This document shows positions 1,759 to 36,149 of a stretch of DNA of 64,000 bases, in pieces. The DNA comes from Synchiropus splendidus. Its lineage: Eukaryota > Chordata > Actinopteri > Syngnathiformes > Callionymidae. Location: positions 9,133,501 to 9,197,500 of the forward strand of contig NC_071342.1 in the NCBI RefSeq assembly GCF_027744825.2, given 5' to 3'. The translations under genes and the position numbers were made by a program. A model generated the notes under the pieces. That model was not told the origin of the DNA and did no database searches. It worked only from the letters and a program-made list of their open reading frames with translations. Within the stretch, counting starts at the first letter, position 1, and each line of letters starts with the position of its first letter.

Positions 1759-1942
1759 TAGTGATGGGCTTATGGGGTTTCATGAAACAGTGCCCTGATT
1801 ATAAGAGGCCACCAGATGGCACTGTCTGCTTTAGAGACTTTGGATTTAATGAAATCTCACAGCATTTAGGAGCCAAGAGCGCCATCTAGAGGCCTGGGAA
1901 AATTAGGACCCTGTTTCATGATGCCTCATCTGTCCATCACTA
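1759..1942. mobile_element. hAT-type miniature element, copy 1 (CTCF-motif family)
   Basis: The copy begins TAGTGATGGG and ends CCATCACTA and is about 184 bp long. Terminal inverted repeats of roughly 60 bp include the TTTCATGAAACAGTG block and its complement. The flanking octamers CATGGGAC and CATGGGCG match at 6 of 8 bases, as expected for an old hAT 8-bp target duplication. GGCCACCAGATGGCACT at 1807-1823 fits the CTCF consensus; the inverted partner at 1878-1895 has one mismatch. There is no coding capacity. Confidence 0.8.
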
Positions 1943-2967
1943 CATGGGCGGGTCCAAACAAAGAGCATTGATTGTCAGACTCTAATACAAGTCAGACAAA
2001 ACCAGGAGATGCTGGTGAGTTTGTGTAACCAACGAGAAAACCAGAGCCGCTTTTGTGTGCAATGACAAACACCTATTAAGCTATGAGAAGCATTTGCACC
2101 AAGTCAGCGCAAACAGTTAAAAAAAGACGGAAGACAGTGTCGTGGCACGTAAGAGCAGCAGATAGACAACAGAGACGCGCAAGAGCTTCCAGAAAAAAAC
2201 ATTTAAAAACATCTGCAAAGCCTCCAGGTGGAAGAGTCTGAGAACAAAAGTTATGTCTAGAGCTTACTTATTTGCAAGAGCAGGATGGATGGACGGGGAT
2301 TTGTCAAAATAAAAACAATTTTAAAAAAAGGACAGATCAGCCTCAAAAAAGACAAAGAAGATCTTTTTCCAGCGGTGGAATACAAATCCAGTTTGACTTC
2401 TGATGCGATGTATTTTTCCCCAGATTTTCAGAGCCAGGGTGAAAGGCTGATCTGAATCAAGCAAATGCTTTCAATGAGGTGATTGATCGCAGCCTCCCTG
2501 AACACATCCATCTGTTTTTCCAGACCTGATGAACCCGATCAAAGACCCTGTGGGCTCCAGCTCCTTCCACGCCGCGGTCACCAATTACAACCCCTCATGC
2601 TCAAACCTGCCTGTTATGTTGCCGGCCAAATACTCCGGAGAGCAGACCACACAAAGGGCCCTGTGACAGAATCAGGAGGAGCGGTTCCATCGACAGCGAG
2701 TCAGCGCTGGGATCATGGTGCAGAGGAGCCGCATTTAATAAAAAAAAAAAAGCCTTCCCCACTGTTTCTCATGAACTCACTCATAGCTGCAGCTAAAGAC
2801 TGTCGTGATCCGAATCAAAACTATCCAAGATACAGTACTAGCACGAACAAGGAAAACAGCAGGCACAAGAAAATGCCCACTGAGAAAACAGGAGGGACAC
2901 ATTGCAGCAGACATTGCAGACCTGACATGGCAGGAAAAAAAGTCAAAAAAGCCCACAAAATAATTTG

Positions 2968-3460
2968 AGAGAACAAAGTCCTAATTCAGTACTCATTTGT
3001 GGGCACAAAATACTAAGTTGAAGGAACTAAATACTTTTTCGAAGGAACGAAGTACTAAGTTGAAGGAACTAAATACTTTTTCGAAGGAACGAAGTACTAA
3101 TTCGAGGGAATGAAGTACTAATGTGAGGGAACTAAATACTTTTGAAAAAACTAAGTGCTCATTTGAGGGAACGAAGTATTAATTTGTGGGCATGGAATAC
3201 AAATTTGAGGGAAATAAATACTTCTTCAAAGGAACGAAGTACTAATATGAGAGAACTAAATACTTTTGAGGGAACTAAGTGCTAATTTGAGGGAACAAAG
3301 TACTAATTTGTGGGCACGAAATACTAATTTGAGGGAACTAAGTACTTTTTAGAAGAAACAAAGTGCTTATTCGAAGGAATTAAGTACTAATTCAAGGGAA
3401 CAAAGTACTAATTTGAGGTAACGCAGTACTAATTTGTGGGAACACTATACTAAATTCCCC
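2968..3460. repeat. minisatellite of about 21-bp units (GAGGGAACAAAGTACTAA)
   Basis: More than twenty diverged units of about 21-22 bp follow each other. Most fit GAGGGAACAAAGTACTAA plus a short ATT/TTTG spacer; a second variant reads GTGGGCACGAAATACTAA. Units contain the self-complementary AGTACT core. A single inverted stretch with the same motif lies at 3582-3620. Confidence 0.85.
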
Positions 3461-4584
3461 TTCTCTCCCATCAGCATTAGCTAGTGTGGCAGTCCTGGGT
3501 GAACTTGCTAAATTGCAGGGTGTTCAAATACTTTTTCTTTTTTCCTCACTGTTTTTTTTCCACACTGTAGTATTTTTTTGCCCAAAAATGAGTACTTTGT
3601 TCCCTCAAATTAGTATTTTGTGTGCATGTTTTACTTATTGCATGGCCACAATTTATTTTATTTTGTTTTTTGACATGTCAGGTCTGGAGCTCCGTACAGA
3701 TGAAATATGTGTCAAATACGATGCATCCATCCACCTGGATAATATTTTTTTAATAATTAAAGTGAGTCAAAAAAGTTGATCTACTATAATACATTTTTGA
3801 AAATCATGTTTTATTTGAAGGACTCATAATCTAAGCCATATAAACTTTAAACTTTACTCGGCTTTGGCCACAGATCTTTCATTCGGTCGCCTCCCTTCAA
3901 TCTCATTGAGCTGCAGTATGTGTGTGGTGTCGTCTCCAGATCTGCTCTTGCATCTGCATTGATGGAAGACGTCCTGCTTTATAACTCGTCTGGAATGATT
4001 TCTGATCTCATATTCACTTTATCTATGTTGCTTGACAGCCCCATACGTGCGGCATTTCAACTTCGAACTTCAGGGACAGCAACTTAATTACCGAAAAATA
4101 TTTGAATTTCATTGGCATGTTATTGATTTGCAGGCAGTGGAGGCAGACAGGGAGCAATTAGGGATGTTGCACAAGGGCACACTGAGGCTTCACTGAAAAA
4201 GATTCTCGATGAAACTGCAGAAACTGCAGATGCCAGAAGAGCAATACATTTCCCCCCATTTACATTCAAGCTTTGGGCTTCTGGTTGCTCATAATGGGAA
4301 CAGAAAATACAGCCAGGAAAGTAGCAGGGCCAGAGATATTTGGCTTGTTCCATAGATCAAACACTTCAGAACAATGGGGATATTGATACGTACAAGACGT
4401 GGAGCAGCATTGCACCAGAACAAACAAACACACTACAATGTTCTGCAACAGAACATGCATCAGCAGAGCTCAGAAAGCTCTGAGCAGAGGACGTGAAAAC
4501 ACCAAGGGAGCCGGCCTTGGGAAGAGGAACACTCAGTTTCATAGTCAGTTCTGCACATCACTGAAACTCGGACAACTGAATGGT

Positions 4585-4676
4585 GAAGCTTCATGAAACA
4601 GCGTCCACATTTTTAATAGAGTGCGCCATATGCTGACTTCTGAAAATGAAGATAGGGTTTCATGAAGCCTCATCAG
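4585..4676. mobile_element. decayed relative of the CTCF-motif hAT miniature element
   Basis: The TTCATGAAACAGCGTCC and GGGTTTCATGAAGCCTCATC blocks face each other about 90 bp apart, matching the terminal repeat blocks of the family. The outer TAGTGATGGG ends are not recognisable and the CTCF-like motifs are lost apart from a GTGCGCCATATGC remnant. Confidence 0.5.
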
Positions 4677-5269
4677 AGGTTTCTGTTGAGTAACCGTGCC
4701 TCATTGGTCGACCACCTTCCTCTCAGCATTTCTAAACACGTTTTTACCTTTGAACTGAAGTTGTGATTTAAGATCACTGCTTTACAATACCATTGATGAA
4801 GCACTGTGTTACTCACCTCTTCTTATTTTTTATTATTATTTTTAATATTTTTTTTAATTCAACATTCTCACAATGTTCACATGACACGTTGAAGAAAAGC
4901 TCTCTTTTTTGAGCATCTGTGTAGCACATTGTGTGTCCAAGGCAGCGGCGTGTCAAGCCGTCAGAAAAATCCCTGAGATGATGGTCGACATTCACAGCGC
5001 CACCAGACAGGAAGTGCTCCGCGGAACTGCAGGTTTCAGTGTGAGCAGTAATTAATGCACGTCATGAGCTTTGAGACCCGAGGAGGTAATCAGTCACTCT
5101 GATATATTTCAGGGATCGCAGGTGTGACTGACTGGCTCTCAAATCCCCACCACAGCTCCTTCAATAGACGCGCACAATCGCAATACAAGGCATTTTATTC
5201 GATGGATGCCGTTTAACAAGGGCAGGCGACATTATTGACTTCAAGAATTTACGGATGAAGGAAAAAAAT

Positions 5270-5365
5270 GGGGCCCAGATGGGGCACTTTTCTCATGCTG
5301 GGGGAAATGGCTGGTGATTGAGCACCACTTGGGGTCTGTGTGTGCACGTCCCTCGGAAGCAGATC
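5270..5365. repeat. short dispersed repeat, partner of 23400-23455
   Basis: GGGCACTTTTCTCATGC followed by GGGG and, further on, TGTGCACGTCC occurs here and again at 23400-23455 in the same order with different spacing. Two copies in one window suggest a small unclassified dispersed repeat. Confidence 0.4.
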
Positions 5366-7683
5366 ACGCAACACCTCGAGCAGAAGATGCAACCATCAGA
5401 ACAGAAGCTCATGGCTGGCACAACCAGCATTAGTGATATTGAAACACTCTGCTCTGAAATTACACACAAGCACCCAAAGTCTGACACACGCCACAGGACA
5501 GCTCGACCACACAAAAGACCCCACCTTCTATAAACAGTCCAAGGCTGAACAACTCTTGCTTAGTGAACATTAAAATACTGGGAAGTCATTAACATGCACT
5601 CAGTGATGTGTGACCGTGCGTTGAATCGCAATTGTAATTTTCAGTAAACCATACTCTATTGACAGATTTGGTGAGTCACAGAAAATATTTTGGGTGCCAC
5701 GCCTCGAGTGACCCATGAGACCCAAGCAACAAAAGTAAGCGTGACATATTTGAAAGAAGATGAAAACAAAAGAAATAGAGACTTGACAAAATATTATTCC
5801 TTTTGAAGAGGTTGCATGAAGTGATTTGTTTTGGCCTTCTTGGCTTGTGACACATTTTTCTTTTTTAATAAAAGTAGCACAATAAAACAAGTGTCACTCA
5901 TGAAAGGTTTGAACTCAGTGGAGAATACCATCTTGTTGAAGTCACTTTAACAGATGGCTGGTTTATAATTGCAGCAACAAACTCTTTCAAACTATCTACG
6001 TTCCTTTCAACATTCCAAAAGCAGCTTATTGCTAAACCAAAAGCTGAGCAAGAGTAATCCACGTCAGGTCTTCCCTTGAGCTTGAGGAGTGGAGCAGGTC
6101 CAGGCTCAACAGGTAACTTGTTGCCGTCAGCCATCTTTTTCAACCCAGTTTACCCCGCTTACGCCTCCCGAAAACCAATCCAGTCAAGTTTTCGTATCGC
6201 CCTCAGAACATCTGTGAGAAGTTTGCTTCAACAGCTCGACTTACTTCCTGCATAGCTTTGACTGATTCGTGATGCCTGTGACAGCAGGTGGGAACAGCAG
6301 CGCTGGTTGGCTGAGGAGACTTAAAACTAGTGGTGCGTTCGTGTGCACCTCGGAAGGTGATGCTTTTCAAACGTGACGCCTTCTCTATTTGGAATTAGAA
6401 ACAACAAACACTAACTCTTTGGTGAGTGAAACATCGGCTGCCTTTACTGATGAAAATGAACAGTTCAAAACAAGGTTGGACGCAGAGTGTCAGTGAGCAC
6501 GGCTGCCGGATGATATGCAACGGAGCAGGGCTATAATGGGTTCAGTTAATCCACTAGAGACGCAGGTCAGAACTGCACTTACTGGATCCAGAAAAGGTGT
6601 TTCAGGTAGAAAGGATTACTGCGGGTCAGCAGGCGATGCAGTTCATGCAGAGGATGGGGAGGATTCATGTCTCCACTCTGGCTGAGGAAGGTCTCTCTCC
6701 CTGTCAGTGAAACTTCTGCTTGAAGGCAATATCTGCTGATTTTTGTTCCATATTTTAGTGTCCGTATCTGAGAGACTCAGCGCAAAACTCATTAAATTTC
6801 CACTCACTGTCTCCTCACTGATACTTGATTACATGAATAGACTGGAGTGGATTATGCTTCTGCTTAACTGACACCGATGGCACTCATCATGCTTTAGCTT
6901 TCATCAAAGTCAAATGCATGTAGATTACTGTGTATTGATAAACAACCATACACTACAATCAGGGCCCAAGACAGGCATGAAAAGTTGACTCTAAAAATAC
7001 AGCTTGTCTCTGTTGTATTTATATCTGACGCACGTACGCAGATTTAAATAGAAACTGAAACTTTCCATCAGAACACATCCACTCTTTTGACACGGAGCAC
7101 AAGAAAACAGGCAGTTAGTTATTTTGAGGATTCAACCTCAAGGCTCAGCTGCTTTGAAACAGAAAATGAGCGTGTTAATAGTTTCCACCCTTCTTCAAAC
7201 AACAGACTCGAGCTAAATTACACATCTGTCTTTATATTTAATAACCGCTCCTCCTGTTAGCTAATGATCCCTTTCTGTTTCTGTTCTTTGCCCCCCGCTT
7301 CTCTCTGTTTCGGATTTGTTTTCCTTCATTAACTGCCTGCCTGTTGTCATCCCTGACTCTGAGTTCAAACAGCAGCAGCCAGAAACACAATATGTGTCAG
7401 TACATCTCGTGTTGGGGAAGTGTTATGAAAAGGCTTATGCTCGACATCATTAAATAATATTTAATTCCCTTTTACGATGGCAGAGGTGACTGTTCAAAGG
7501 TAAACACAAATGAATTATCATGCTTTATTTATGTGTTTTGCCTGTTTAATTTGGAGGCAGTAAATCAGCCTGACATGACTGGTGACTTCTTCATGTACTA
7601 CTTGCAGCAGAGACACTTAATATTAGGCAGCTGCTAGTTTTCTTCGCTGAGTCAGTTGATCATTGTGCAGGATTAGTATTTAG

Positions 7684-7855
7684 TAGTGACGGGTAGATGA
7701 GGTATCATGAAACACCGTCCTATTTTTCTGAGAAAATGATGTGGTGTTTCATTGGATGAGTTGTTCAAGTCCAAACATTCTGCGGCAGACAGTGCCATCT
7801 GGTGGCCTCTGAAAATCAGGACACTGTTTCATGAAACCTTACCGACCCATCAGTA
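7684..7855. mobile_element. hAT-type miniature element, copy 2 (CTCF-motif family)
   Basis: Ends TAGTGACGGG and CCCATCAGTA, with inverted GAGGTATCATGAAACA and TGTTTCATGAAACCTTA blocks. The left CTCF-like motif has decayed. The right one, AGTGCCATCTGGTGGCCTC at 7791-7809, is a perfect consensus match on the minus strand. Confidence 0.75.
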
Positions 7856-8682
7856 GTATTTTATGCACAAGCAAGTAATAGCACTGAGCGAATCCTTGTG
7901 TCTGGTGTGTGTTAAGAGTGTGAATTTGCCCTGATAATTGTGTCTGAAAACAGTTAAGAGTCGACCATCCTAAATGTTCAACATTTCCAACCAAAAATCT
8001 CACACCACGTGTGTGGTGAGATTCCCAACCTGAACTGTGACGTGGATTGGATAGGAACTCACCAAGAAGCAATCCGACAGGAAAACAAGGAAGCAGAGAG
8101 ATGTATTGAATAGACGGTCTCACTACCAATGTGGAGCCACCCTGAACCTGGTTCGTCCCTTCCTATGTCTGGGCGAGTCTGTTCTGTGATGAATTCTTTC
8201 AGGGAAGAAAAAAAAAAAAAACAGTAAACCACCATCCCCCAATGCACTTTATTGTTGTGACTTGTATTTTTCGCTTGTTGCGACGTCTCCATCTCATTTA
8301 TAAAGTGCAATTTCTAGATATTTCAGGCTATTGATCAGTGGTGAGGCAGATTATTTTTGTGTGTGGTGTGCAGCGATGGAACTAGAGGTCACATAATGAT
8401 CAATGACACACTTCCATCTTCATGAGTGGGGTCGAAAAAAAATATTATGTTGCCCATATGTTGCCATGGCAACTCCTGTTTGCTCGTTCACCAAGCAAAA
8501 CAGCAGCAACAAATGAATTGGTTCCTTGAGTTTTGGGGCTTAGACTTTTAGGTCCAATGCAATGTAAAACAGTCTTTTTATTAATATTTTAGGACATCTA
8601 CGTAGTTTATATGAGTTTATTAAGACATAGACAGGGGTGAAGAAGGAGAACTCATTTTCCAACCCATTTTCAAAAATCACTA

Positions 8683-8885
8683 CACGTAACATCCGACTTA
8701 CAACTCGGATCGTTTCCAACCAACCGGTCGTAAGTCAGTTTGGACGTTAGTCGAATGCCATTGAAAATAGCTGACGCAAGGGTTACAGGTACTGCTGTAG
8801 TGGTAGATGACTGTGTGAGAGTGAGGTGCTGGGACACTGTGCTGCCGTAACTGTCGTACACCTTGTCAGACATTGAATTTTATGG
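8683..8885. mobile_element. right-truncated copy of the TA-flanked miniature element
   Basis: Shares CGTAACATCCGACTTAC, ACCGGTCGTAAGTC, the GTAGTGGTAGAT block and CAGACATTGAATT, in the same order, with the complete element at 18480-18767. The right inverted repeat is missing. A TA precedes the left end. Confidence 0.75.
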
Positions 8886-9750
8886 TGTATAGTGAGTAAG
8901 AAGCCAAGAAACCTTGCTCAAGCATTTAGCAACACTAAAGCACAAATGTCAGATTGGATTGGATTAAATACTCCAACGTCAAAATTGTCAATATTGCAGT
9001 CAAAAACGTGCGTATTGGCTGAAGAAATCATCACTATTTTGTGTCACCAGCTAGGATCTTTCAAAGATCAGTCAATTCAAATTAACCAGGCTTCATCGCA
9101 GTATTGACTGAAACATAGCCATCCATATAAACATGACTCCAGTCCTTCATTCTGACGTCTCTCTGTGGCTCACAGAAAAATATTCCCACAGTTTCATCAA
9201 GAATTGATGAGCGGGGTCTGTGAAACCCACCGAGGCTCCACGTTGTGTTTTATATGAACCTGATAAAACTCATGAAATACAAACAGTAATTTAAAGTTTC
9301 TTCAACAGCAACACGCATGTATGAGGAAAAGCGAATGTAATATTTTTTTTTTTAATTCACAGAGACGATGATGATGTTCCTGAGGCGAACTTGAGCTGTT
9401 TGAATCGTGATTCACCATTCTGACTGTGAGTCGGGTGAAACCAGGTGTTAACTCACACCCAGATTGCCCTTCATGCCACCAGAGGAGCTGAATTGCAGGA
9501 CGCTCCGCAGCAGCCATTGGTCAACAGCAGCGGCGCCATTATCCCTGTCACCAACATCTTCACCGCCAGTGAGTGCACAGTCATCAGAGCCGTGCCCCGA
9601 CCACCATGCTGCCGAGCGGGTCTGAAATTAGACGCAGCATCGCGGCAGGAGGCTGGGTCAGCGGTTCCCAGAGGGACAAGACCCGCGCTTGATTGCTGGG
9701 CTGAAGCTGTGATGGAGAGGGTAATTAAAGGAGACAAGGGCATTAATAGT

Positions 9751-9772
9751 GTGTGTGCGTGTGTGTGTGTGT
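9751..9772. repeat. short (GT)n microsatellite
   Basis: GT dinucleotides with one interruption (GTGTGTGTGCGTGTGTGTG), followed by a purine-rich GAGGGGAGAGCGGGAGCGAG stretch. Confidence 0.85.
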
Positions 9773-10207
9773 GAGGGGAGAGCGGGAGCGAGCGAGGGCA
9801 AGCACGCCAAAGGTTCCAGTTTGAAGCACGACCATTCATAAACTCCACACAAATAAACGGTCAGAGGGGTCGGATGGGAAAGAACAGAGTGATATGTATC
9901 AAGTATGAACACACGCCGGCGCCGCCGCTGCCATGGCGACCGAAATAATCACAGAAAAACACCAAATGTGGACTGTGGAGCACAGACAAACTGAAAACGA
10001 AAACAGCTCATTCGGGAGCATCAGGTAGCGACCGTTCCTCCTGAATCATGATGTGACCAAGACACCAAGCACCCATGCTAATCTGTCTCATTTGCTGTGC
10101 TGCTTATGGAAGAAATATAACAATCAGGTCTACAGTCAGGTCTGAGGGTTTGCTATTGAGGGTAAAAGGCTCCCCTATCCAGGACCCTCTTTTCCCAGCT
10201 CAGCATC

Positions 10208-10990
10208 ATCAGAATCAGAATCAGAATCAGAATCAAATTTATTGCCATGGTCAGTGGGGAGCCCACTGACTAGGAAAGTGCCTTGGAATAAAGTGCAACA
10301 AAAAACAAATACAATAAAATAAATAGAATAACATTACAACAAGGCTGTTCATGAATTTAACAGTCTGACGGCCGAGGGAAAGAAGCTGTTCCTGTGACGG
10401 GAGGTTCTGGTCTGGATGGACCGTAGCCTCCTGCCGGAGGGAAGAGGAACAAACAGTCCATGACCAGGGTGAGAAGGGTGGGCTTTGATCCGACCTGCAC
10501 GTCTCTGGATCATGGAGACATACAGGTCCTGAAGAGGTGGCAGGCTGCAACCGATCACCTTCTCAGCAGAACGTACGATGCGCTGCAGTCTGCTCTTGTC
10601 CCTGGAGGTGGCACTGTTGTACCAGACGGTGATAGAGGAGGTGAGGATGGACTGGATGATGGCCGTGTAGAACTCCACCAGCAACTTCGTCGGCAGTCGT
10701 AGTTTTCGTAGCTGCCTCAGAAAGAACATTCTCTGCTGGGCCTTCCTGATGAGGGACCTGATGGTTGGCTCCCATGCGAGGTCCACAGTGATGGTGGTTC
10801 CCAGGAAGCAGAAGGAGTCCACAATAGGAATAGGTAAACCAGCCAACATGAGAGGGGACAGAGGAGCTGTTACTCTCCTGAAGTCTATGGAGATGGTCAT
10901 AGCGATAGCGACACTGTCGCTATCGCTATATACTGTCCCAGGTCTTCCTCCCAGTTGGACGCCTCCCATAACTGTACATACATACATGCA
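10208..10990 (-). mobile_element. LINE fragment: C-terminal end of reverse transcriptase ORF plus 3' tail
   Basis: An open reading frame on the minus strand (10987-10349, 212 codons) encodes the C-terminal tail of a non-LTR retrotransposon polymerase. It includes SLIRKAQQRMFFLRQLRKL, VEFYTAIIQSILTSSITVW and RRAGRIKAHPSHPGHGLFV. The 3' end has AATAAATTTGATTCTGA repeats (plus-strand TCAGAA units at 10208-10234), the short-repeat tail of teleost Rex1/CR1-L2-like elements. The 5' end is truncated. It is probably inactive, but the remaining ORF has no stop, suggesting a fairly young insertion. Confidence 0.8.
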
Positions 10991-11004
10991 TCATGAGTCG
11001 TGTT

Positions 11005-11090
11005 CAGGGATACCGGGGGTGCTGGAGCGTATCTCAGCAGTCATTGGGCGAGAGGCAGGAAGACACCCTGTCCAGGGTCGCCAGAGGCAG
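11005..11090 (+). repeat. L2/Maui-like repeat fragment
   Basis: Contains GTCATTGGGCGAGAGGCAGG followed by ACACCCTGTCCAGGGTCGCC, a block very common in teleost genomes (3' region of L2/Maui-type LINEs and derived SINEs). It directly abuts the LINE fragment on its left. Confidence 0.6.
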
Positions 11091-11099
11091 CAGGGCTCA

Positions 11100-17000: not shown

Positions 17001-18470
17001 TCTAGTCTTTCACCTTGATAGCAGAGAATCTCCCTAGAATCCCTCATGAGGAGCAGTGGCCAACACTTTTAAACACAACTCTTATTTTTCAGCTTCAGTT
17101 CAAACCCTTCGATTTTTGGGGTGTTCAGCAAAACTTTATCGGCTGGTTTTAATAGAACATAAGGTCAAAATCGATGATCTGGGCGTTGGGGCTGGTGATA
17201 ATGACTCCGCTTCATTATACATTTTACTTCTGAAGGATTCAGTAATTCCCATTGAAGATTGAATTCCTTTTACAACCCGGGCTGAAAGAGCCATTAAGAG
17301 CCATCTCAAGAGGCCACATTTGCTCTAGTCACTTGCGTCACTCTGGCATTGATGCAGAAAAATATTAAATCAAGATGAAGCTCACTCTTTAGTTGGTGTT
17401 TTTTTACAGGCTTCCTGACAAATGAATAAACAACGACAGGTCTTTTTTCTCACCGTCTATTTCCAGCACTCCGTACCTGGCTGCAGTCACCTAAAGATAC
17501 AAGTCTCTGCCTGCCCGTCTGAACCTGACACCAAACAGTGAACAATAAAGCCTCCCCTCTCTCCCCTCTCCCAGGATCACCAGCCTGTCTTCACCTCCGA
17601 CCCGTCACCGGCCACCTCAACATGTGGGCGCCCGCGAATCACCATGAGGAAAATAACAGCCGAGACAACCGAGGTGAGCCGCAGCTTGTACCATCCATGA
17701 AGCCCTATCTTCATCGACTGTCATTTCAAGCCAGCTTTAATCATTTTAACATCAAATGAAAAGTTATATAAAGTTACCAGAATACATTATTCATCTCTGT
17801 AATTCAGATGATCTAACTTGATTTTGGGTATTGGCTTGACACTCCATCACAGCCACAGTAAGGCACTTTGGAGCGTATTAACCATCCCCAAAGGTTATCT
17901 CTCCTTTCAGCCGGCTGCCCTGTGAAGCCGAATATCTCATTTGAAGAGGATCTTGGCACGTCCCCTCCTCCTTGTCTCTCTTCTCTCCCGGTGCTGCTGC
18001 CTCATGGAGCACACAGCAACCTGAAAAGGCCAAATATTGATCCTCTTGAAATGACTCTGAGATTTAATTACACAAAATGCCCACTGTGAAGTTTGCAGCT
18101 TCCTCTGCGTCTGAACAGACAACTATGGTCGAAACTAAAATATTAGGGATGTCGGGGCACTTCCACCTTCGTAAAGTGGTGGGGAAAACATCAGCATAAA
18201 AATGAACCGCTAGTTCTTCTTTACAAAGCGCAATGAGAAATACATAGCCCAATAAATAATTGGTACAGAATTTTCACAGATAGTCACCGCTGCCAGATGG
18301 AAACACAGATTGTGAATGTTTGAGACGACTGGTTCAACATGGACGAGAGCATTGCAAACGTCCTATCCCACCGCTAAACCCATAATGCTAATGTTGTGGT
18401 CGCTACCACCCAACCCAAGATCGAACCAAGACCAAGAGTCCAGCCTGAATTGGGTGGGTGGGTTTTCCAA
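11100..18470. other. long non-coding stretch
   Basis: Besides the hairpin at 12191-12250, no gene or known repeat was recognised. Open frames stay under about 115 codons and show no family motifs. Confidence 0.55.
12191..12250. other. imperfect hairpin, 20-bp arms and about 19-nt loop
   Basis: AAAATCATCGAAGTAAGCAT (12191-12210) faces ATGCTTACTTCTATGATTTT (about 12230-12249), with one mismatch. Size and single internal mismatch resemble a small RNA precursor or the core of a miniature transposon. No TIR-type ends or target duplication were found around it. Confidence 0.7.
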
Positions 18471-18479
18471 AATAAAATA

Positions 18480-18767
18480 CAAGTAACATCCGACTTACGA
18501 CCGGGATCGGTTCCAACCGGTCGTAAGTCGGATTGGATGTAAGTCGAATGTCATTCAAAATAGCAGATGCGAGGGTTATAGCTACTACTGTAGTGGTAGA
18601 TCGCTGTGTGAGAGTGAGATGCTGGGATGCTGTGCTGCTGTAACTGTCATACGTGTTGCTACGTGCTGCGTGCCAGACATTGAATTAAAAAAAATAAGCA
18701 CCTGCTGGCCATGGTCGTAAGTACAGGTGGACGTAAGTCGAGCAGGTCGTAAGTCGGATGTTACTTG
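18480..18767. mobile_element. TA-flanked miniature element (mariner/Tigger-like)
   Basis: This 288-bp element starts CAAGTAACATCCGACTTACG and ends with its inverted complement, CGTAAGTCGGATGTTACTTG. It is flanked on both sides by TA (18478-18479 and 18768-18769), the target duplication of the Tc1/mariner superfamily. The GTAAGTCG motif recurs internally. There is no transposase ORF, so it is non-autonomous. Confidence 0.8.
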
Positions 18768-18859
18768 TACCTTATTGTTTGCCTATTAATTCGGGTGAGC
18801 TAAAACAAGATGGAGAATTTACCGGTCGGTCAATGCTCCAACCTTCACTTAAGGTCATG

Positions 18860-19220
18860 AGATTTGGGTTATGAAAGGACAAGGTCAGGGATACAAGCAG
18901 CCAAAATCAGCTTTCTCTGCAGGGTGTCTGGGCCCAGCCTTTTGGGATGGGACACCCGGGTGAGACTCAAAGTAGAACCGCAGCTACTAGGTGTTGAGAG
19001 GAGGCAGATGTGGTGGTATGTGGCATCTGCTAAGGAGGCCATCCAGACCTTTCTTTCAGGCATGTCCGTCTGGGAGGAGGCCAGAAGCCAAACCCAGAAC
19101 ATGCTGGAGAGAATATCTTGCCCAAATGGACTGGGAACACCTCAGATTCCTCCCAGAGGAAATGGAGAAAGTGACCGGGGACAGGAGTGTCCGGCCTTCC
19201 CTGTTGAGACCAAACCAGAG
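18860..19220 (+). mobile_element. non-LTR retrotransposon fragment (C-terminal RT tail, several lesions)
   Basis: The plus strand encodes a decayed C-terminal tail of a fish LINE polymerase. GRRPEAKPRTCWREYLAQM and WEHLRFLPEEMEKVTGDR match the typical GRPRTRWRDY and WERLGIPPEELEEVAGER blocks of this group, probably Rex3/RTE-like. Upstream the match continues through ATTTGGGTTATGAAAGGACA. Frame changes show it is inactive. Confidence 0.7.
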
Positions 19221-20402
19221 GGGCACCCAACACAACAACGTAACTTGTGGAAGGAAGAACAATGTTTCATATATCTTTGTTATTAAACTTGGGTCAGGAG
19301 TCACAGCCAACTCATGAGAAGCAGCTCAATAAAAGCTCTGGTTTTATGGATTAGCGGCAGAAACCAGATTGTTTGATAGAAGACTCAGAGCAACATGACC
19401 AGGGCGAGAACCTTGGAAATATGGCTTTAAGACAGAGACCAGTCCGGAGTGTTGGTTCACTCCTTCATGTAGCCATTGACCACTTGAAGCACTCTTGCTA
19501 AAGAAAAGAACTTCAGCCCCGCAAGACTCTGAAGAAACCAGGGTTGCACCCAGCGGCCCAAGTATCCCCCAAAAAGTACTCCTGCTCGATAGCAAGCTGC
19601 ATTAGTAATATGAGTGGACTGGGTATTTAATGGAGGTTTATACTGTATATATATAAATGCCAAAAAAAAATCTGATGAAATCCAGAGTTCACAGCAAAAT
19701 TCTGTGGTTCCATTTCGAGCGGCAGGTTTGTGTGTCTTCCACGCATTCATATCGTGAATCATCTCCGTCTGAACAAAAGTAGGTACCGAGAGAATACACT
19801 TCAGCTGGCCTCGTCGGATTTATGAATACAACTGTGACATTTTGAGACCCGTGTTGGTGGGAGATCAGAATTCAAGAGCAATGGCATTTGGGAAATATTG
19901 GCACTGCTAAACAGATTTGCTTTATTAAATATCCTCTTTGACCACATCGTCTGCGAGCTGAGGGTTTGCAGCGCCGACGGTGCCTCCGGGGGAAGTCACA
20001 GGGAGAATAACATGGAAGAAAAGGCAGGCCTTTAGTTCCAAATTATGGCGTGGCTCCTGTTTTTCAGTGTGGCTGTGAAGCAGCGGGGGTCTTCGCATGC
20101 CCCTATATACTTCACAGTTGATGTAAAAGAAGTTTTCATAATAGGGCCAACTGAGCCAGAGTGGTTATGTTTTACAGTGGCTTAGAAGAGTTGAGAATAT
20201 AGAGGAGATAATGGTGAAGCTGGAGGTACAAGCAGGAGGGTGGATGAGAAGATGAGCAGTGACAGTCAGAAATGAATGGAGGTGAAGCAGAGAGTGCAGA
20301 CCGGGTGGAGACGACAGAAAGAGGCGACAGAAAAATGGCAGCTGGAGTAAGAAGGACGTAAATACCACAGAAATGTGACCTGCCATGATGCATGGTTTAG
20401 AG

Positions 20403-20585
20403 CAGGGGTGACCAACCTGGTCCTTAAGGGCCACACTGGAGGGTAGGTTTATGCTTCAACCCTGTCTGAAGACAGTTTGGTGCTGCTTGTTTCAGTTGTC
20501 ACTTTGGTTAAACATTGGTTAAATTGTGTGTGGTTTATGGGAACTAAAACCTGCAGCCCTTTCTGAAATAGTTCGGTCAACTCTG
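20403..20585. mobile_element. second hAT-type miniature element (CAGGGGTG family)
   Basis: The left end CAGGGGTGACCAACCTGG and the right end GTTCGGTCAACTCTG are imperfect inverted repeats. The flanking octamers GTTTAGAG (20395-20402) and GTACAGAG (20586-20593) match at 6 of 8. The CAGGGGTG terminus and the GGGCCACACTGGAGGG interior are typical of widespread vertebrate hAT/Charlie-like miniature elements. Confidence 0.75.
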
Positions 20586-20748
20586 GTACAGAGCATGTGT
20601 CAAGCGCAAAGCCCAGGGCTCAAATCTGCACAAAATTCAATTCATAACTAAAAGAAGCACACCGGAAACTACCTGAGCTCATCATGCAGTTGACTTCCAG
20701 AGATGCCAGTGTCCAAGCTTCGCCATTGTACACACCAGGATCTTCAAC

Positions 20749-20911
20749 TAGCGATGGGTAGATGAGAGGTATCGTGAAACGGTATCTGAATTTTCAGAAG
20801 CCACTACATGGCAATGTATTGATCGTACAAGACCAGTCACTTTACAGCAGACAGTACCATCAGGTGGCCTTTGAAAATCAGGACACTGTTTCACAAAGCC
20901 TCATCTACCTA
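20749..20911. mobile_element. hAT-type miniature element, copy 3, with perfect 8-bp target duplication
   Basis: The element runs from TAGCGATGGG to CATCTACCTA. It is flanked by identical octamers TCTTCAAC at 20741-20748 and 20912-20919, the best evidence in the window that the family is hAT-type. The right terminus is a few bases shorter than in other copies. Both CTCF-like motifs are present in position but carry two or more mismatches. Confidence 0.8.
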
Positions 20912-21779
20912 TCTTCAACTGATCTGAAAACTTGAAGCATAAAGAGGGATGCTTTGCTTTTCAAGTTTGCCTCTGAGTCACTGACTTGTCTACACTTCCA
21001 CTACAAGGCTTGACCACAGCAGGCCCCTTGTCTGACCGAGTATGACAATGTTTGACAGACGAAGACACACCAAGAATGTTGGCCATATGGATGGAGGATT
21101 CAGATGCAGAAATTGAAGACGTCGTGAGACAATAGAGGATTCATCAAAGAGGTTAAATTGGAGGAGGATGACAAGCTCTGGCAACCCATGATGGGGAAAT
21201 GCCAGAATATGAAGTTTGATATGCAAAGGGTTTTTTTTAAAAGGCGACATATGTACTTCACTCCACATCGCTTTCACTGCGGTCGGAGGGCAAAGGTTCT
21301 TGGGGCAGGGTGAACAAGAGCAACTGAAGAGGGCGACTGAAATTATGGGATGGCAAGGTGGTGTGGAATGAGACCATAACTTCCCTTCCGTTCCCCAAGA
21401 ATCACAAAAAGACAGATGGGACTAGCTCAATTTTGAGTGGTAGAAACTGGCTGAAAACCAAACCAAACAAACACCTCTATGACGAATAGGTCGATCATAT
21501 GATGACTCCCTTCCTAATCATCAGATTCCACCACTGGAGCAGGACTTACTGTGCTGTTATATCTCATGAATATTTCATAAAGTTTTAATTGTGATTCGAA
21601 AATGTGTCAAACTTTTACCCAATCGCCACTTTTCTGCAGTGAGCTCTTCCAGTTCTGAAGAGAAAACATGCATGAAAACTGGCTCAAGATGTTCAGGAAA
21701 GCATGCTCGGGGAATGTTACACCAAAAATGTGTTTTGTACACTCGGTATCTAAATAAAGCCGCTGACCTCTGCACCCTC

Positions 21780-22350
21780 GCAATGAAGTGTGTCTCTAAT
21801 GAGCAACATTCATGTGGAAATACAAAAGCGAGCGCTACGGGGACGAGCCGCTGCCAGAGTCAGAGAGCAGGCGAGAGCTGGAGGTGGAGAATAACAAAAG
21901 GCAGAGCAAGGTAGTAATACTACTGCGCCGCTCCTCATCTGGCTCGCCTGTGGACAAAGCTTATCAGTTAGAGTGCTGGTCACGCACACGCTGGAATACA
22001 GATGGGCCAGTGAGTGTTTCTGACCTGCCACTCAATGATTTAAGGGGTGAGATTAAACAAGTACAAGTGCTGCCATCTATATGCGCAGTGTGTGCGTGCT
22101 GTGTTGCAGAGCTGCGCACTATGTTTGTCATCGCGCCTTTGCATATTTGCGTGTGTACCTGGTGTTTGTTGGCCGCCATTATTTGCTGGCCAGTCCCGTG
22201 TGTGTACCTGCGGGTGTGCAAACAAGACAGCGGCGAAAGTCTCCATTTAAGCAACGTGTGCTGCGGCTGCAGACTAGAACAGCGGCGGCGGACAAACCGC
22301 TCCTATAAATCTTTTGTTGCAGCGGTAGAGTAACACGAGTCTCCAACGCA
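21780..22350. other. CpG-richer stretch with a 173-codon open frame, unassigned
   Basis: This stretch has more CpG and GC than its surroundings and contains an open frame on the plus strand (21812-22333) whose product has no recognisable motif, with no obvious partner exon. A TATAAAT sequence lies at 22304-22310. It may be a promoter, an enhancer or a first exon; I cannot decide. Confidence 0.3.
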
Positions 22351-22692
22351 CCGGGTGCAAAGTTCCTCAGTTGTGTGACAGCGTGAGGCTCGGAGTTGTT
22401 TTGGGGTGCTCCTGCAGCTTCAAGATAATATGCTCAGTTCGGCTCCAGCGTTCAGCCTCTGACTCTAATCTCTCTTGACGTACAAATTGAGAAGCCCCTC
22501 GTAAACGGAATTGGGCCGCTCCTTATTTGTGACTGCGGTGGTGGAGAGTAAACCAGCACAATTACGCAACTGAGGTTCCGCTGCACAATTAGAGTTATGA
22601 CCAGGATATTGTCTGAGGACAAAGACAGGACTTTAAAAATAACATGCAACAGTTCCACGTCACTTATTTTCAGAGCTATTTCCAGCACTCAG

Positions 22693-23210
22693 TAGTGATC
22701 TGCAGATGAGGTTTCATGAAACAGTGTTCTTCAGCGGCCACCAGATGGCAATGTTGGCTGCAAAATGTTTGAACCTGAACAACTCTTCAACAACTCTTTC
22801 AATGAAACCTCACATCATTTCTAAACCAAGAGCGCCATCTTGTGGACTCTTAGGCACTGTTTCATGATGCCTCATATACCCATCACTACTACTCACCTCG
22901 GTAGTCAGCAAGTTAGCGAGGGTTTCATGAAACAGTGTTCTCCAGCGGCCACCTGATGGCACTGTCTGCAGCAAAATGTTTGGACTTGAAAAACTCTTTC
23001 AATGAAACCTCACATCATTTCTAAACCAAGAGTGCCATCTTGTGGAGTCTTAGGCACTGTTTCATGATGCCTCCTATACCCATCACTACTACTCACCTCT
23101 GTAGTCAGCAGGTTAGCGAGGGTTTCATGAAGGAGTCCTCATTTTCAGCTCACTAGGTTTTCAAAATTTCATTGGTCAAAGGCAACATGAGGGCACTGCT
23201 TCATGAAGCT
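22693..23210. mobile_element. hAT-type miniature element, copy 4, tandemly duplicated (about 2.4 units)
   Basis: Unit 1 spans 22693-22888. Unit 2, about 211 bp downstream, ends at 23088. A third, truncated and diverged unit follows at about 23119-23205. Units 1 and 2 share the non-element linker ending GTAGTCAGCA plus GTTAGCGAGGG, so the duplication happened after insertion and included flanking DNA. CTCF-like motifs lie at 22735-22752, 22831-22848, 22946-22964 and 23031-23048, in alternating orientation. Confidence 0.8.
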
Positions 23211-23399
23211 TCATCAGCCCAAAACTAGCAGGGCACTTCAAGTTAATGTGGATCATAAGGCCAGTGTAACAACAAAACATTTTATGGTGTCTATTGTAAA
23301 GCAACAGCTTTTTCACCCAAGGGCAGAGGACATTGGCAGGTAGGTTACTGGCTTCAAACAGGCTTTAAATCTGTCAAGGATTTTCTTTAGAAAATAAGA

Positions 23400-23455
23400 A
23401 TGGGGGGCTCCAGAGAGGGCACTTTTCTCATGCAGGGGCTGCCTGTGCACGTCCT
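23400..23455. repeat. short dispersed repeat, partner of 5270-5365
   Basis: Compact copy: GGGCACTTTTCTCATGCAGG, then CTGCCTGTGCACGTCC. The shorter spacing suggests that this is nearer the ancestral form. Confidence 0.4.
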
Positions 23456-25038
23456 TGTTTTAAAACAACCCAGTGAGAAGGATTTGGCCCCCAAGCCTGG
23501 AGTTTGACTCATGCCTCACTTGAAGTGACTTCTTGCCCGAGAAAAAAAGCAGCCTCTCACCAACAAGAACGTATTTTAAGTCTGTTGTATTGATATGATA
23601 GAAGCCTATTTCAACGTGTCTGAAACCACATCATGCGGAGCAAACGCCGCCCGAGGAGGCAGTCACCGCCAGCACTGTCATCTGTGTGAAATCGATGCCT
23701 CAAACTCTCCCCGTAGCATCAAACTCTCCCGATCGATAGCTGAGAATATCTAACAGTGATGCGGCTGGACTCCGGTCTGCGGATCATTGCCTGAGTCGGG
23801 TGGAAGGCGTGGAACTGTTTTGCGAAAGAGACTTTATTTTGATTCATTTAAATAATAAATGTCTTCGGGAACCTATGAGCTCTGAGCTGAAAGCACAGAA
23901 GTAATTAAGTATGAACATTGTAAGTTTTGCAGTTTTAATGGCGCCTGCCCTCAGTTTTAAACACATGATAAAAATTTGAAAGTAGCAGAATGAAATTAGT
24001 GTTGGAGAATTTGTGCAAATGGAATGTAATTCGCCGTCTTTAAAAACTCAGGTCTGCGGCGGCGAGGAGGCCGGCGAGCAAATTGCCTACAGTTTCACAC
24101 CGGTGCACGTGCGCAAAGAGCTTCCTTGGATCTGCATGTCAGGTTCTGTCGGTCAACTATCAACAAGTGTGTGTACCTGGTTTAGCCTCATGTGTGGGGA
24201 CCAATTGACAGAACATGTCCTTGTGAGAACCTCATGCTTTTGTTGGGACCATTTGACCAGAACGCACAATTTCAAGCATCAATTTGAGGATGAAGACTTC
24301 AACTTCACCTAGCTCATCCTGGTTAAGGCTATTTTTTTTTTGGATGGTCAGGTTTAGGTTGAGTGAGTGGTCCCCACAGAGATGGAGATACAAACACGTG
24401 TGTGCGTACCATCGCAGACAAGGAGTGTTTTTCTCCAAAGAGAGATCTTTCTTTGAGTGGAAATCAAAAGGCAACTGCAGAGATAAGATATGTGCATATG
24501 TGTTTTAAAATGCAGGTCAGAGGCAGACATCCGGGCTGAGTGTGCACGCCCCCTAGTGGTGAAGCCCCTCAGGCTCAGTCCAGAAGCACACCCACCACTA
24601 ACTTAATATGATGTCAGCCAAGCACAAGTGTGTTCTGCAGCAATAATTAATGGGCCTCGCTGACAATAAAACAGGCATAGAAATATGAAAAACAGTTTTA
24701 ATATTTAATACGTTTGTGATGATGATGTGTGAAAAAAGGCGTTTTCCCTGAGCCTTGCAAACTGTGACCAATGTCTGGCCTGTGGGCCGAATTGCAGCGT
24801 TTGATCATATTTAAACAGCCTGAAGCCTGTGGAACAAAATGCATCACGTGGCCCACCAATAGTGTAAAAGTATGTATAGTGTAGTGACAGTGAAGCGTGT
24901 GACAGACGCAGATTTCTAAATTCGAGTGTGAAGAGAGAAAATATGACAGCTGCACAGTGATTTGGGACAAGTTCATGATCGCGAACTTTGAGACTTCAAA
25001 GTCTGCTGAGAAAAACATGCTGCTCAAAGTTGTTTGAG

Positions 25039-25259
25039 TAGTGATGGGTACATGAGGCTTCCGAAGACAGTACTGAAGGGTTGTTGAGGTTTCACGAAAC
25101 AATATCCTGGTTGTACACGGTCTGCTGTGAATATTTGGATTTGAACAGCTAAGTCAATGAAACGTCACATCATTTCTAAACCAAGAGCGCCATTTAGTGG
25201 CCTTTGAAAATAAGGACACCAACCCTGCAACACTGTTTCACGAGACCTCATCATCATCG
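25039..25259. mobile_element. hAT-type miniature element, copy 5
   Basis: The left end is TAGTGATGGGTACATGAGG. An internal ATGAAACGTCACATCATTTC block and a right CACTGTTTCACGAGACCTCA block are shared with the other copies. The right terminus is decayed. The inverted CTCF-like motif at 25185-25203 (AGCGCCATTTAGTGGCCTT) has one core mismatch. Confidence 0.7.
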
Positions 25260-25683
25260 CGAGTAAAAACAACCCCTTTGGTTTTTCAGTCTAGTGGTCA
25301 AAAGACATACTTCTAATGCTTCACTTTGTTTGCCATATACTCAGTATTTTTTTTTCTGCAAGTGTAACCCATTGTAAAGCATTTAACAATGACAATCGTG
25401 AATTGTAAACACCACTTTAACTTTCTATAAGCCTCAAATTGACATGGACATGAATCAATTCAACATGAATAAAAACATAATCCTGTCATCTTGTGAAATA
25501 TCCCACATTAATGCAATAATATACAGAGGTTGTGAAGCGTGAGCTGTGATCAGGCGACAGATTATTGTACTTGAACTGAAAATGAAAGTCAATTTATCTG
25601 CCTAAAAAAAATTCCTGGTCAACATGCACAAATGGCGATTTTAAATAGAGTGATATTTTTAACTCTTTTCCGACACTGGTGGC

Positions 25684-25869
25684 CAGTGGTGGGTAGATGA
25701 TGCATCATGAAACAGTGTCCTACTTATGGAGGCCACTAGATGGTGCTCTAGGTTTAGAAATGATGCAAGGTCTTGTTGGTTTAGTTGTAAGTCCAAATAA
25801 TTGACAGCAGACAGTGCCATCTGGTGGCCTCTGAAAATCAGAACACTGTTTCATGAAACCTCACTACTG
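25684..25869. mobile_element. hAT-type miniature element, copy 6
   Basis: The left end is CAGTGGTGGGTAGATGATG and the right end is TTTCATGAAACCTCACTACT. The left motif GGCCACTAGATGGTGCT at 25731-25747 has one mismatch. The right motif at 25812-25831 (CAGTGCCATCTGGTGGCCTC) is a perfect inverted CTCF consensus match. Confidence 0.75.
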
Positions 25870-27569
25870 AGGGCAGTAGGTTGGAGTACGGCCTGAAAGT
25901 CACCCTTCCCTTTGAGGGACACAGCAACAAACATCGCAAGCATCACCTCAGGTCAATGATATGAAAACAAAAAAAAGCTGCAGCAGTAAGAACTAAATGT
26001 GAGGGGGACACAGGGCGAGGGACTGAGGAGCAGCAACCGAAAAAACAAGTCAATGGAAAGGCTGCGAGGCTGCAAACTGTACTTCTTTGCAGTTTCTCAG
26101 AGAGGCGTGTGACTGACAGGTGGGAACATTAATCCCCAGCGCTCCTCAGCACTCCTCCTGCCGAGGTGGAACATAGGCCATCAATCTCGTTAACCTATTG
26201 GAAACGCCACTTTTCTCCAGCTCGTGTTCACCACCACCCGCCGCCACTGATCGTCACACGCCGTCCTGCAGATAAAAGATTCATGCGTCTCCCATTGAAG
26301 TGCGCAGGAAGCCGTTTAAACACGTGCTCGGATGTCTCGGGACCAGACAGAGGGGACGTACTCTTGTATTACCATGGTGTTTACTACACTTCTGAATCCC
26401 CAATGTTGGGGATCCGCAGCTTGCGTTTGTCACACATCTGCTGCCTGCGTGAAATCGGGGTTGCCAGGCGGCGTCTCACTCGATTCCCCCCTGCTCCCAG
26501 AGCTGCTTGTAAGTTTGACTCGGAGCAAGCATCTGCAACAAGAATCTTTTGTTTCCATTTAACGGGAGTCAGTCAAGCTGAGGGAACGTGTCCACAAACT
26601 GTCACTACCGGGTGCCGTTAAGTAGATGGGCCGTGCTTTAAATTCTACCTCCGTCCAAGAGAGGTTTGTCAGTGCTGAGGAAAACAGAGCGTAGGCACGG
26701 CACCAATAACAATATCAATGGGGAATATTTTCAAGCATGTTTACTGGAGCGATGTTTTGGTGGCCAGTTGCACGTTTTCTGGCGAAAGCTTGAAAACACT
26801 GTGACCACCTCCGACGTCACAATTTGGATAGTAATGCGGGTGCACGGCCACGTTGGAGACGTTCCAGTGGGATGATGAGCACTGCGGTGGAGAAATGTCG
26901 GAAAGGTACGGAAAGGCGAATGACTTGGTCCACTGAAAAGGACATGATATTTGTGGTGCAGCTCCACACACTGCTGGAAAGAGACCTCAGAAGTAATGGG
27001 GAAAAACTTTGAGTCGGTTCAGGCACCAAATGTTAACACGATATGATATTTTACTGAAAAACCGGGGCCATCAATAGATTCAATTATGCAGTTAACTTGC
27101 AATTTTTTTCATTCGTTCTACAACAACACAAGAGTTTAAAAGGCAATCATTCACAGTTAACTCAAAATTTTGGTTTGAGTTGGTGCTGAATTGTAACTTA
27201 TAGTACCAGTGAGAACTGGGTACTTTACAGCCAATAGTTGCTCTGTTCACAATGTAGTTTTCCTTTAGTTAATCTGTGTTCTGTTTAAAGTGATAGGAGC
27301 CATCTTCCACAATACCACTATTGGCAGTTAAAATTTACATCCATATACTGTTTGTTGGATTTTGTATAGATTCTTTCCTTGTAGATCCTGGTTTAGCTTC
27401 ACTGCCCACAAGTGCCCCCTACAGCCTTTGGCATTGTTCTCCCAGGGAGTCGATAATACGCCCAATGTTTTTCATGGATTAACAAAAATACAATAATTTT
27501 CCATTTACCTCGCTGCCATTCAGGACCTTATTCAGCCCGTATGCATTGTTCACCTGCCGAGCGCCTCCA

Positions 27570-27605
27570 AAGTGGCGACTTATATTATTATATAAGTCGC
27601 CACTT
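27570..27605. other. perfect 15-bp hairpin with 6-nt loop
   Basis: AAGTGGCGACTTATA at 27570-27584 is followed, after TTATTA, by its exact reverse complement at 27591-27605. There is no T-run, and the context is eukaryotic, so a terminator reading does not apply. Confidence 0.85.
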
Positions 27606-27776
27606 ATTATATATGGTGACGATATTTGGGTTTCTTTGGCCATGCTTCATGTATAAATCTCTTGAAAACAGTGCCAGAAAATGTGCAACAGAACGTAGAG
27701 TGACGGTTGTGTGATGAAGTGCAGAGCACTCAGTGCCAGAGATTATGTACTAGGATATCAGTTTGTTTGTACACAG

Positions 27777-27954
27777 CAGTGATGGGTAGATGAAGTATCA
27801 TGAAACAGTACTGCAGGCTTCGTGAAACACTGGACTCATTTTCACAGGCCACAAGATGGCGCTCTTGGTTTCAAAATGATGTAAAGTATCTGGCCATCTG
27901 GTGGCCACTGACAATCAGGACACTGTTTCATGAAACCTCACCTGCCCATCACCA
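27777..27954. mobile_element. hAT-type miniature element, copy 7
   Basis: Ends CAGTGATGGGTAGATGAAG and CCTGCCCATCACCA. The flanking octamers GTACACAG and GTGCAAAA match at 5 of 8, compatible with an eroded duplication. CTCF-like motifs lie at 27845-27862 (GGCCACAAGATGGCGCT, one mismatch) and, inverted, at 27891-27910 (one mismatch). Confidence 0.75.

Positions 27955-36103: not shown

Positions 36104-36149
<46 letters not shown>

What the first reader, a model, noticed from the sequence alone, without database searches (positions are those of the whole stretch)
1759..27954. A hAT-type miniature transposon family whose inverted repeats carry a convergent pair of CTCF-consensus motifs
Seen in the sequence: at least seven copies share TAGTGATGGGTAGATGAGG-type ends, a TTTCATGAAACAGTG block and, at the inner end of each ~60-bp inverted repeat, GGCCACCAGATGGCACT or GGCCACTAGATGGCGC. 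Known: the vertebrate CTCF core is close to CCASYAGRKGGCRSY. Perfect core matches on one side are at 1807-1823, 7791-7809 and 25812-25831; most other copies differ by one base. Because the motif sits in both inverted repeats, each complete copy has two sites facing each other about 75 bp apart. Inference: transposition of this family would scatter paired CTCF sites, as SINEs did in mammals, but from a DNA transposon in fish.
Basis: partly seen in the sequence, partly recalled or inferred. Interest (0 to 1): 0.8.

Follow-up and report, generated by a model that had tools for sequence, protein, structure and literature searches.

The report
Fish mini-transposon spreading paired CTCF sites
A short, very abundant jumping-DNA family in a fish carries two facing copies of the DNA word read by the genome-folding protein CTCF, and one of the two words appears to have resisted mutation since the copies inserted, which suggests that the fish's CTCF uses it.

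Summary
The window has eight copies and two fragments of a non-autonomous hAT element (219-bp consensus, 8-bp target duplications). Both inverted repeats end inward in a strong CTCF core. In sampled copies that keep both sites, the sites always face each other (86 of 86; 67 bp apart in the consensus). The 583-Mb genome holds roughly 12,000 copies. Of 11,165 exact CTCF-core matches, 5,940 are the element's own variant and 3,542 of these also carry its arm sequence. In 166 copies not picked by motif state, CTCF-breaking changes in one site (arm A) run at 0.34 of the element's own rate (95% 0.24-0.44) and CTCF-tolerated changes at 1.23; arm B is nearer neutral (0.80). E-box and YY1 readings do not fit. 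Target-duplication divergence suggests that most mutations came after insertion, so resident copies look constrained. One of three samples did not reproduce the matrix-shape test. CTCF occupancy could not be tested. hAT-borne CTCF sites are already published for lamprey and zebrafish, so this is a new variant of a known kind; the pairing, the genome share and the constraint are new. The search for an autonomous partner did not complete.

The parts
1759..1942 (+). Complete copy 1 (A arm left), flanking 8-bp duplication CATGGGAC/CATGGGCG
1809..1823 (+). Arm-A CTCF core, perfect (22.7 bits over 1806-1824)
1878..1892 (-). Arm-B CTCF core, 1 mismatch (19.1 bits)
7683..7856 (-). Copy 2, arm-B site deleted
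7791..7805 (-). Arm-A CTCF core, perfect (22.7 bits)
20749..20920 (-). Copy 3, weak sites (best 13.3 bits at 20852-20870, -)
22691..22891 (+). Copy 4, both sites present
22738..22752 (+). Arm-A CTCF core, 1 mismatch (21.9 bits)
22831..22845 (-). Arm-B CTCF core, 1 mismatch (18.4 bits)
22901..23091 (+). Copy 5, near-tandem duplicate of copy 4 with altered left end
22949..22963 (+). Arm-A CTCF core, 1 mismatch (19.3 bits)
23031..23045 (-). Arm-B CTCF core, 1 mismatch (16.0 bits)
25038..25262 (+). Copy 6, arm-A site deleted
25186..25200 (-). Arm-B CTCF core, 1 mismatch (14.4 bits)
25683..25875 (-). Copy 7, both sites present
25733..25747 (+). Arm-B CTCF core, 1 mismatch (18.3 bits)
25813..25827 (-). 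Arm-A CTCF core, perfect (22.7 bits)
27776..27957 (-). Copy 8, both sites present, interior shortened
27849..27863 (+). Arm-B CTCF core, 1 mismatch (20.6 bits)
27889..27907 (-). Arm-A CTCF-like site, 15.9 bits
4574..4696 (.). Decayed fragment of the family
23106..23230 (.). Decayed end fragment of the family

Best explanation
This is a non-autonomous hAT family (a MITE) of roughly ten thousand copies, presumably mobilised in trans by an Ac-type hAT transposase that was not found here. Each inverted repeat ends inward in a CTCF core, so a complete insertion installs two CTCF sites facing each other about 67 bp apart. Shown: the family, its target duplications, the motif pair, its genome-wide abundance, and that the arm-A motif lacks mainly those substitutions that the CTCF consensus does not tolerate. 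Inferred: CTCF binds the arm-A site in many resident copies, and selection for binding has kept the site, whereas arm B is bound less or is redundant. A convergent pair should act as a short two-way barrier to loop-extruding cohesin (established CTCF-cohesin polarity, recalled).
For: Family: 2,067 places match a 30-mer of the end with up to 2 mismatches, control 0. hAT: matching 8-bp flanks above 2,000 of 2,000 shuffles, nTnnnnAn composition. Motif: both consensus cores over 22 bits, next best placement 2.9; 86 of 86 two-site copies convergent, 0 of 1,127 background windows with two sites. Genome: 11,165 exact cores, control 54; 5,940 are the element's variant, control 0; 3,542 of those carry the arm sequence. 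Constraint: CTCF-breaking changes 64 against 189.5 expected, tolerated 48 against 39.4 in 165 copies; E-box and YY1 readings do not separate. Arm-A breaking ratio 0.34 (95% 0.24-0.44), below arm B (0.80) in 1,000 of 1,000 bootstraps and stable when any one contig is left out or sites near gaps are masked. The CTCF placement on arm A ranks first of 322 in sets T, N and pooled. Parsimony changes per arm-A site 6.4 against 16.7, 0 of 20,000 permutations as low; permitted changes 43 of 64 against 23.9 expected. Post-insertion clock 0.147 per copy (0.113-0.190) against a divergence of 0.111 and an arm-A rate of 0.029.
Against: No occupancy data. Set F (59 copies) did not reproduce the matrix-shape result: arm A ranks 115th of 322, tolerated changes there are 0.73, and none of 59 has the T-to-G change at core position 9; breaking changes were again low (0.27). 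In the 18 copies anchored at the B end the unmasked arm-A ratio was 0.84-0.92; it fell to 0.46-0.55 when sites near gaps were masked, on small numbers. The T-to-G excess at core position 9 includes copies with like flanks or from one stretch of one contig. The target-duplication clock rests on 8 bases per copy and includes BLAST-picked copies; its two middle positions alone would give about 0.07. So strong a depletion averaged over sampled copies is a lot to ask of host selection.
Confidence: 0.66

Rival explanations
1. Element-level selection: an intact arm-A motif was needed for propagation (through CTCF-kept open chromatin or as a subterminal transposase-binding site), so source copies kept it, and resident copies then decayed freely.
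For: On the tree, the 7 arm-A non-degenerate sites have no internal-branch changes, against 3.8 per neutral site. The Hermes hAT transposase is reported to bind its DNA asymmetrically (PMC10368747, title and start of abstract in the listing), which could explain why A and B differ.
Against: The target-duplication clock puts most of the divergence after insertion. Arm-A change rises little with copy divergence: 0.043, 0.030, 0.033, 0.075 against neutral 0.065, 0.096, 0.126, 0.198. A transposase site would not be expected to follow CTCF's degeneracy. The internal-branch result is weak, because on a star-like tree slow sites show few internal changes by chance alone.
Confidence: 0.2
2. Lower mutation or better repair at CTCF-bound DNA in the germ line, without selection.
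For: It would also act after insertion and only at a bound site. In set F tolerated changes are also low (0.73).
Against: Protection should act on all changes at a position, but pooled tolerated changes run at 1.22 and breaking ones at 0.34 in the same 13 positions.
Confidence: 0.07
3. The motif is chance or serves only the transposase, and the apparent constraint comes from how copies were picked and aligned.
For: Set F was picked by exact flanks next to the motif. Set N was detected with a profile of the whole element, motif included. The B-anchored subset (18 copies) shows no constraint before masking.
Against: Sets T and N, picked in different ways, give 0.25-0.39 on arm A apart from the B-anchored subset. 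Arm B, with nearly the same letters and the same alignment, is much nearer neutral. Masking around gaps leaves the pooled result.
Confidence: 0.07

Closest known systems
Arctic lamprey repeat #274, DNA/hAT-Tip100 (PMC5504073; passages read)
   Same: A hAT repeat spreading canonical CTCF motifs; 489 of 586 copies are associated with CTCF ChIP-seq peaks.
   Different: Proven by ChIP; hundreds rather than thousands of copies; the passages read mention no convergent motif pair and no test of motif decay.
Zebrafish HATN9_DR (PMC9341505; passages read)
   Same: By its name a non-autonomous hAT family; it contributes 647 CTCF-bound sites, inferred from ATAC-seq footprints.
   Different: Sequence relationship untested; the passages read do not describe motif pairing or constraint.
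Mammalian MER20 and MER91B DNA transposons (hAT, recalled) and mouse B2/B3 SINEs (PMC9902604; passages read)
   Same: Transposon families that supply CTCF sites to loop anchors and domain borders.
   Different: Other hosts and families; loops were mapped there, here only sequence was available.
TE-derived loop anchors in human and mouse (PMC7156512; passages read)
   Same: Reports that TE-derived CTCF anchors show constraint comparable to native ones.
   Different: Those anchors were chosen because they bind and loop; here constraint appears in copies not chosen by binding or motif state.

Membership tests
hAT superfamily | 8-bp target site duplication | tested here: met
   Mean 4.34 of 8 matching flank bases in 41 copies against 2.50 shuffled, 0 of 2,000 shuffles reach it; a mixture fit assigns a duplication to 42% of 116 copies with both ends and 74% of the 52 with clean ends.
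hAT superfamily | Ac-type target consensus nTnnnnAn (recalled) | tested here: met
   Position 2 is T in 45 of 80 and position 7 is A in 48 of 80 left flanks.
hAT superfamily | Mobilised by a hAT transposase with the same ends | not tested
   The search for PF05699 in the genome did not complete.
MITE (non-autonomous DNA transposon) | Short, inverted repeats, high copy number | tested here: met
   219-bp consensus with inverted repeats; 2,067 places match a 30-mer of the end. That it is non-coding rests on its length alone.
CTCF binding site | Match to the CTCF core matrix | tested here: met
   Consensus sites of 22.7 and 22.2 bits; chance rate at 22 bits 2.2e-8 per position; matrix recalled.
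CTCF binding site | Occupied by CTCF in vivo | not testable with these tools
   No chromatin data for this genome.
CTCF binding site | Substitutions follow CTCF's own base tolerance | tested here: met
   Arm A pooled: breaking 0.34, tolerated 1.23; not reproduced by the matrix-shape test in set F. Arm B nearer neutral (0.80).
Zebrafish HATN9_DR or lamprey repeat #274 | Sequence homology to the published repeat | not testable with these tools
   I know of no collection held here with either sequence; no search was made for them.

The most novel reading that the evidence does not exclude
Thousands of insertions of one hAT MITE have been kept by host selection as CTCF sites in this fish, so that a single DNA-transposon family supplies about a third to a half of its exact CTCF core motifs, delivered as prefabricated convergent pairs.
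Probability: 0.42. Interest if true: 0.8.

Novelty: new variant of a known kind. Interest (0 to 1): 0.6.

Why it matters
If CTCF occupies these copies, one transposon family would have rewritten the CTCF landscape of a vertebrate genome with two-sided barrier elements. Thousands of related natural insertions, with one or both sites broken in known ways, would be a ready test set for how site orientation, pairing and spacing shape cohesin loops. The apparent post-insertion constraint in copies not selected for binding bears on an open question: whether TE-derived CTCF sites are mostly neutral or mostly kept.

Tried and rejected
E-box (bHLH) and YY1 readings of the same letters were tried and rejected: their breaking and tolerated changes do not separate (0.59/0.45 and 0.61/0.42). 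GC-biased gene conversion was considered and rejected from the counts: the A bases at core positions 3 and 6 are among the 15 best-kept columns, and C-to-T at position 5 runs at its neutral rate (12 against 10.0). A first constraint test on 107 copies was followed by a second sample, phylogenetic counting, gap masking and a leave-one-contig-out test.

What was dropped or sampled: T is 80 of the 87 exact places listed (one lay in L028, six were not fetched). F is 60 of the 100 places listed, all on contig C1. N is 35 copies, seven of them in the window, found with a whole-element profile. The 28 BLAST-picked copies (set B) were kept out of the constraint tests, except as a separate row (arm A 0.18), but they are in the target-duplication clock. 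Copies scoring below 350 against the consensus were dropped (2 of 80 T, 6 of 35 N, 1 of 60 F), and one more N copy. L001 was dropped because it lies in the window. CpG columns 62-63 and 135-136 were excluded from most later tests, because CTCF-breaking change there is frequent (arm A core position 12: 14 C-to-T; arm B column 136: 16 G-to-A).

The place lists show almost only + strand places beyond about 3 Mb of the first contig although the counts are balanced; I take this as a listing cut and used only the counts. The evenly placed sample of 40 kb held one copy and was too small to give a density. Four literature searches gave nothing that I used.
Full report
WHAT IS THERE. The window (C9:9133501-9197500 of a 582.7-Mb assembly in 96 contigs) holds eight copies and two fragments of one repeat. 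Copy 1 shows the layout: ends TAGTGATGGG...CCATCACTA, flanked by CATGGGAC and CATGGGCG, with CCACCAGATGGCACT on the + strand in the left half and a CTCF-like core on the - strand in the right half. The consensus used, put together by me from the copies read, is 219 bp; arm A has its core at 51-65 and arm B at 133-147, 67 bp apart. The two arms match each other, apart from an insert of about 19 bases in one of them, up to the end of the core and diverge beyond it.

CHANCE. Up to one mismatch, the core matches 14 times in the window against 0.30 expected; 11 of the 14 are in copies. With a CTCF matrix (JASPAR MA0139.1, recalled; its column sums of 908-913 are consistent), the consensus scores 22.7 and 22.2 bits at the two places and 2.9 bits at the next best. 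A score of 22 has a chance rate of 2.2e-8 per position. Within 302.6 kb read around copies and elsewhere, sites of 14 bits or more number 93 inside the repeat (12.4 kb) and 32 outside, where chance would give about 3; that sample was chosen mainly for copies.

FAMILY. A 30-mer of the A-type end matches 1,054 + 1,013 places with up to 2 mismatches, and the reversed control none. In 35 copies found mostly as neighbours of others (set N) the same 30-mer matches 6 times, which gives a rough 12,000 copies. Flanking 8-mers match far above shuffles, with T at position 2 and A at position 7 favoured, the Ac-type hAT pattern (recalled). No autonomous partner was found, because the search for hAT transposase genes did not complete.

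PAIRING. At 14 bits or more, 73 of 80 T copies, 28 of 35 N copies and 58 of 60 F copies keep at least one site; 35, 14 and 37 keep both, and all 86 pairs are convergent. Of 1,127 background windows of 240 bp, 29 have a site and none has two. By the strict consensus, 13 of 80 T and 11 of 60 F copies have a core on both strands. The gap figures printed are 2 too high by my own reckoning of the indices.

SHARE OF THE GENOME'S MOTIFS. The strict core has 5,596 + 5,569 = 11,165 exact matches; the reversed control has 54. The element's variant CCACYAGATGGCRCT has 2,956 + 2,984 = 5,940 (53%), control 0. In the 302.6-kb sample that variant occurs 47 times inside the repeat and not outside; the strict core 54 times inside and 2 outside. 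With six arm-specific bases added, 1,737 + 1,805 = 3,542 remain, 32% of the strict cores; 37 of 47 did so in the sample. So about a third at least, and perhaps half, of the exact cores come from this family. Whether the remaining variant matches all lie in copies was not checked genome-wide.

CONSTRAINT. Three sets of copies were read without picking on motif state: T (80; exact 30-mer of the end), N (35; neighbours, window copies and one from an evenly placed stretch, detected with a whole-element profile) and F (60; exact 10 bp on both sides of the arm-A motif). The element's other positions in the same copies give the expected rate for each base change. In the first test (107 T and N copies) the eight non-degenerate arm-A positions had 36 changes against 96.3 expected (0 of 20,000 base-matched draws of positions as conserved), and 70 of 92 changes at degenerate positions were permitted ones, against 37.5 expected; arm B had 84 against 92.6 (draws without the CpG site: p = 0.045) and 40 of 77 against 32.0. 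With CpG columns removed, the arm-A ratio is 0.36 in T, 0.31 in N and 0.34 in F; arm B 0.83, 0.52, 0.83. Pooled over 165 copies, breaking changes are 64 against 189.5 and tolerated ones 48 against 39.4. Over 166 copies the ratios are 0.34 and 1.23 for arm A and 0.80 and 0.93 for arm B, with bootstrap intervals 0.24-0.44, 0.91-1.62, 0.68-0.96 and 0.65-1.26; leaving out any one contig changes the arm-A breaking ratio only between 0.29 and 0.36. Masking sites within 4, 8 or 12 bases of a gap leaves arm A at 0.31-0.33 and arm B at 0.79-0.82. Counting changes on a tree built from non-motif columns gives 6.4 per arm-A site against 16.7, with none of 20,000 base-matched permutations as low; arm B 14.7, p = 0.17; permitted changes are 43 of 64 against 23.9 for arm A and 31 of 70 against 26.2 for arm B. 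A simulation of decay in gap-free copies put the mean matrix score of both arms above all 200 runs (arm A 20.8 against 14.6; arm B 17.4 against 14.1), so arm B may not be wholly neutral.

IS IT CTCF'S SHAPE? Laying the matrix over 322 placements (position and strand) and correlating its base preferences with the excess or lack of each change, the arm-A placement ranks first in T (0.49), in N (0.50, with arm B second at 0.46) and pooled (0.64, next 0.41). In F it ranks 115th (0.06), which counts against the claim; F has few changes there. E-box and YY1 readings do not separate breaking from tolerated changes.

BEFORE OR AFTER INSERTION? Copies are nearly star-like: pairwise distance is on average 0.905 of the summed distances to the consensus. 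The two copies of a target duplication are identical at insertion, so their difference dates it: 52 copies with clean ends, among 116 with both ends (BLAST-picked copies included), give 0.147 changes per site per copy (0.113-0.190), against a divergence of 0.111 from the consensus and 0.029 at arm A. The estimate is noisy, and its two middle positions alone imply about 0.07, still above the arm-A rate. So the arm-A motif appears to have been protected in resident copies. Selection before insertion is not excluded (one search finds no internal-branch change at arm A).

WHAT IS KNOWN. [quoted passage not shown] In zebrafish HATN9_DR contributes 647 CTCF-bound sites by footprint (PMC9341505, passages; the one paper of the held library with the term hatn9). 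The DNA transposons MER20 and MER91B do so in human (PMC9902604, passages). TE-derived loop anchors in human and mouse show constraint like native ones (PMC7156512, passages). In the listings of nine searches I saw no paper that, by title or start of abstract, describes convergent CTCF pairs inside transposon inverted repeats or a decay test of this kind; only open-licence papers are held.

VERDICT. A real, abundant hAT MITE with built-in convergent CTCF cores; one core looks functionally kept. Occupancy and the two-way barrier remain inferred.

Noticed in passing
window 35579-42050 (-): WAPL, the cohesin release factor, lies about 8 kb beyond the last copy: 35579-35926 matches Pfam PF07814 (1.9e-14) and PDB 4k6j. 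The N-terminal exon at 41640-42050 was named by eye only; Pfam found no family there.
   Followed up: partly
G000 contig C1, about 3.05-8.1, 32.6-34.4 and 41.9-43.0 Mb: Listed copies cluster in blocks, with none before 3 Mb; only the first 100 of 1,957 places were listed, so the genome-wide pattern is not known.
   Followed up: no
window 22691-23091: Two copies about 200 bp apart, 94% identical over 152 nt: a local duplication of one insertion.
   Followed up: no
L014:3840-4001 and 6254-6511, L017:2579-2742, L019:8818-8884: The outer end of the element is repeated in tandem at about 32-bp steps in several places.
   Followed up: no
window 2946-3472: Degenerate 21-bp tandem array, unit AGTACTAATTTGAGGGAACTA.
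   Followed up: no
window 10349-10990 (-): Reading frame with an ALKBH8_N Pfam match and no other family at E 0.01; I suspect a LINE reverse-transcriptase tail but did not test it.
   Followed up: no
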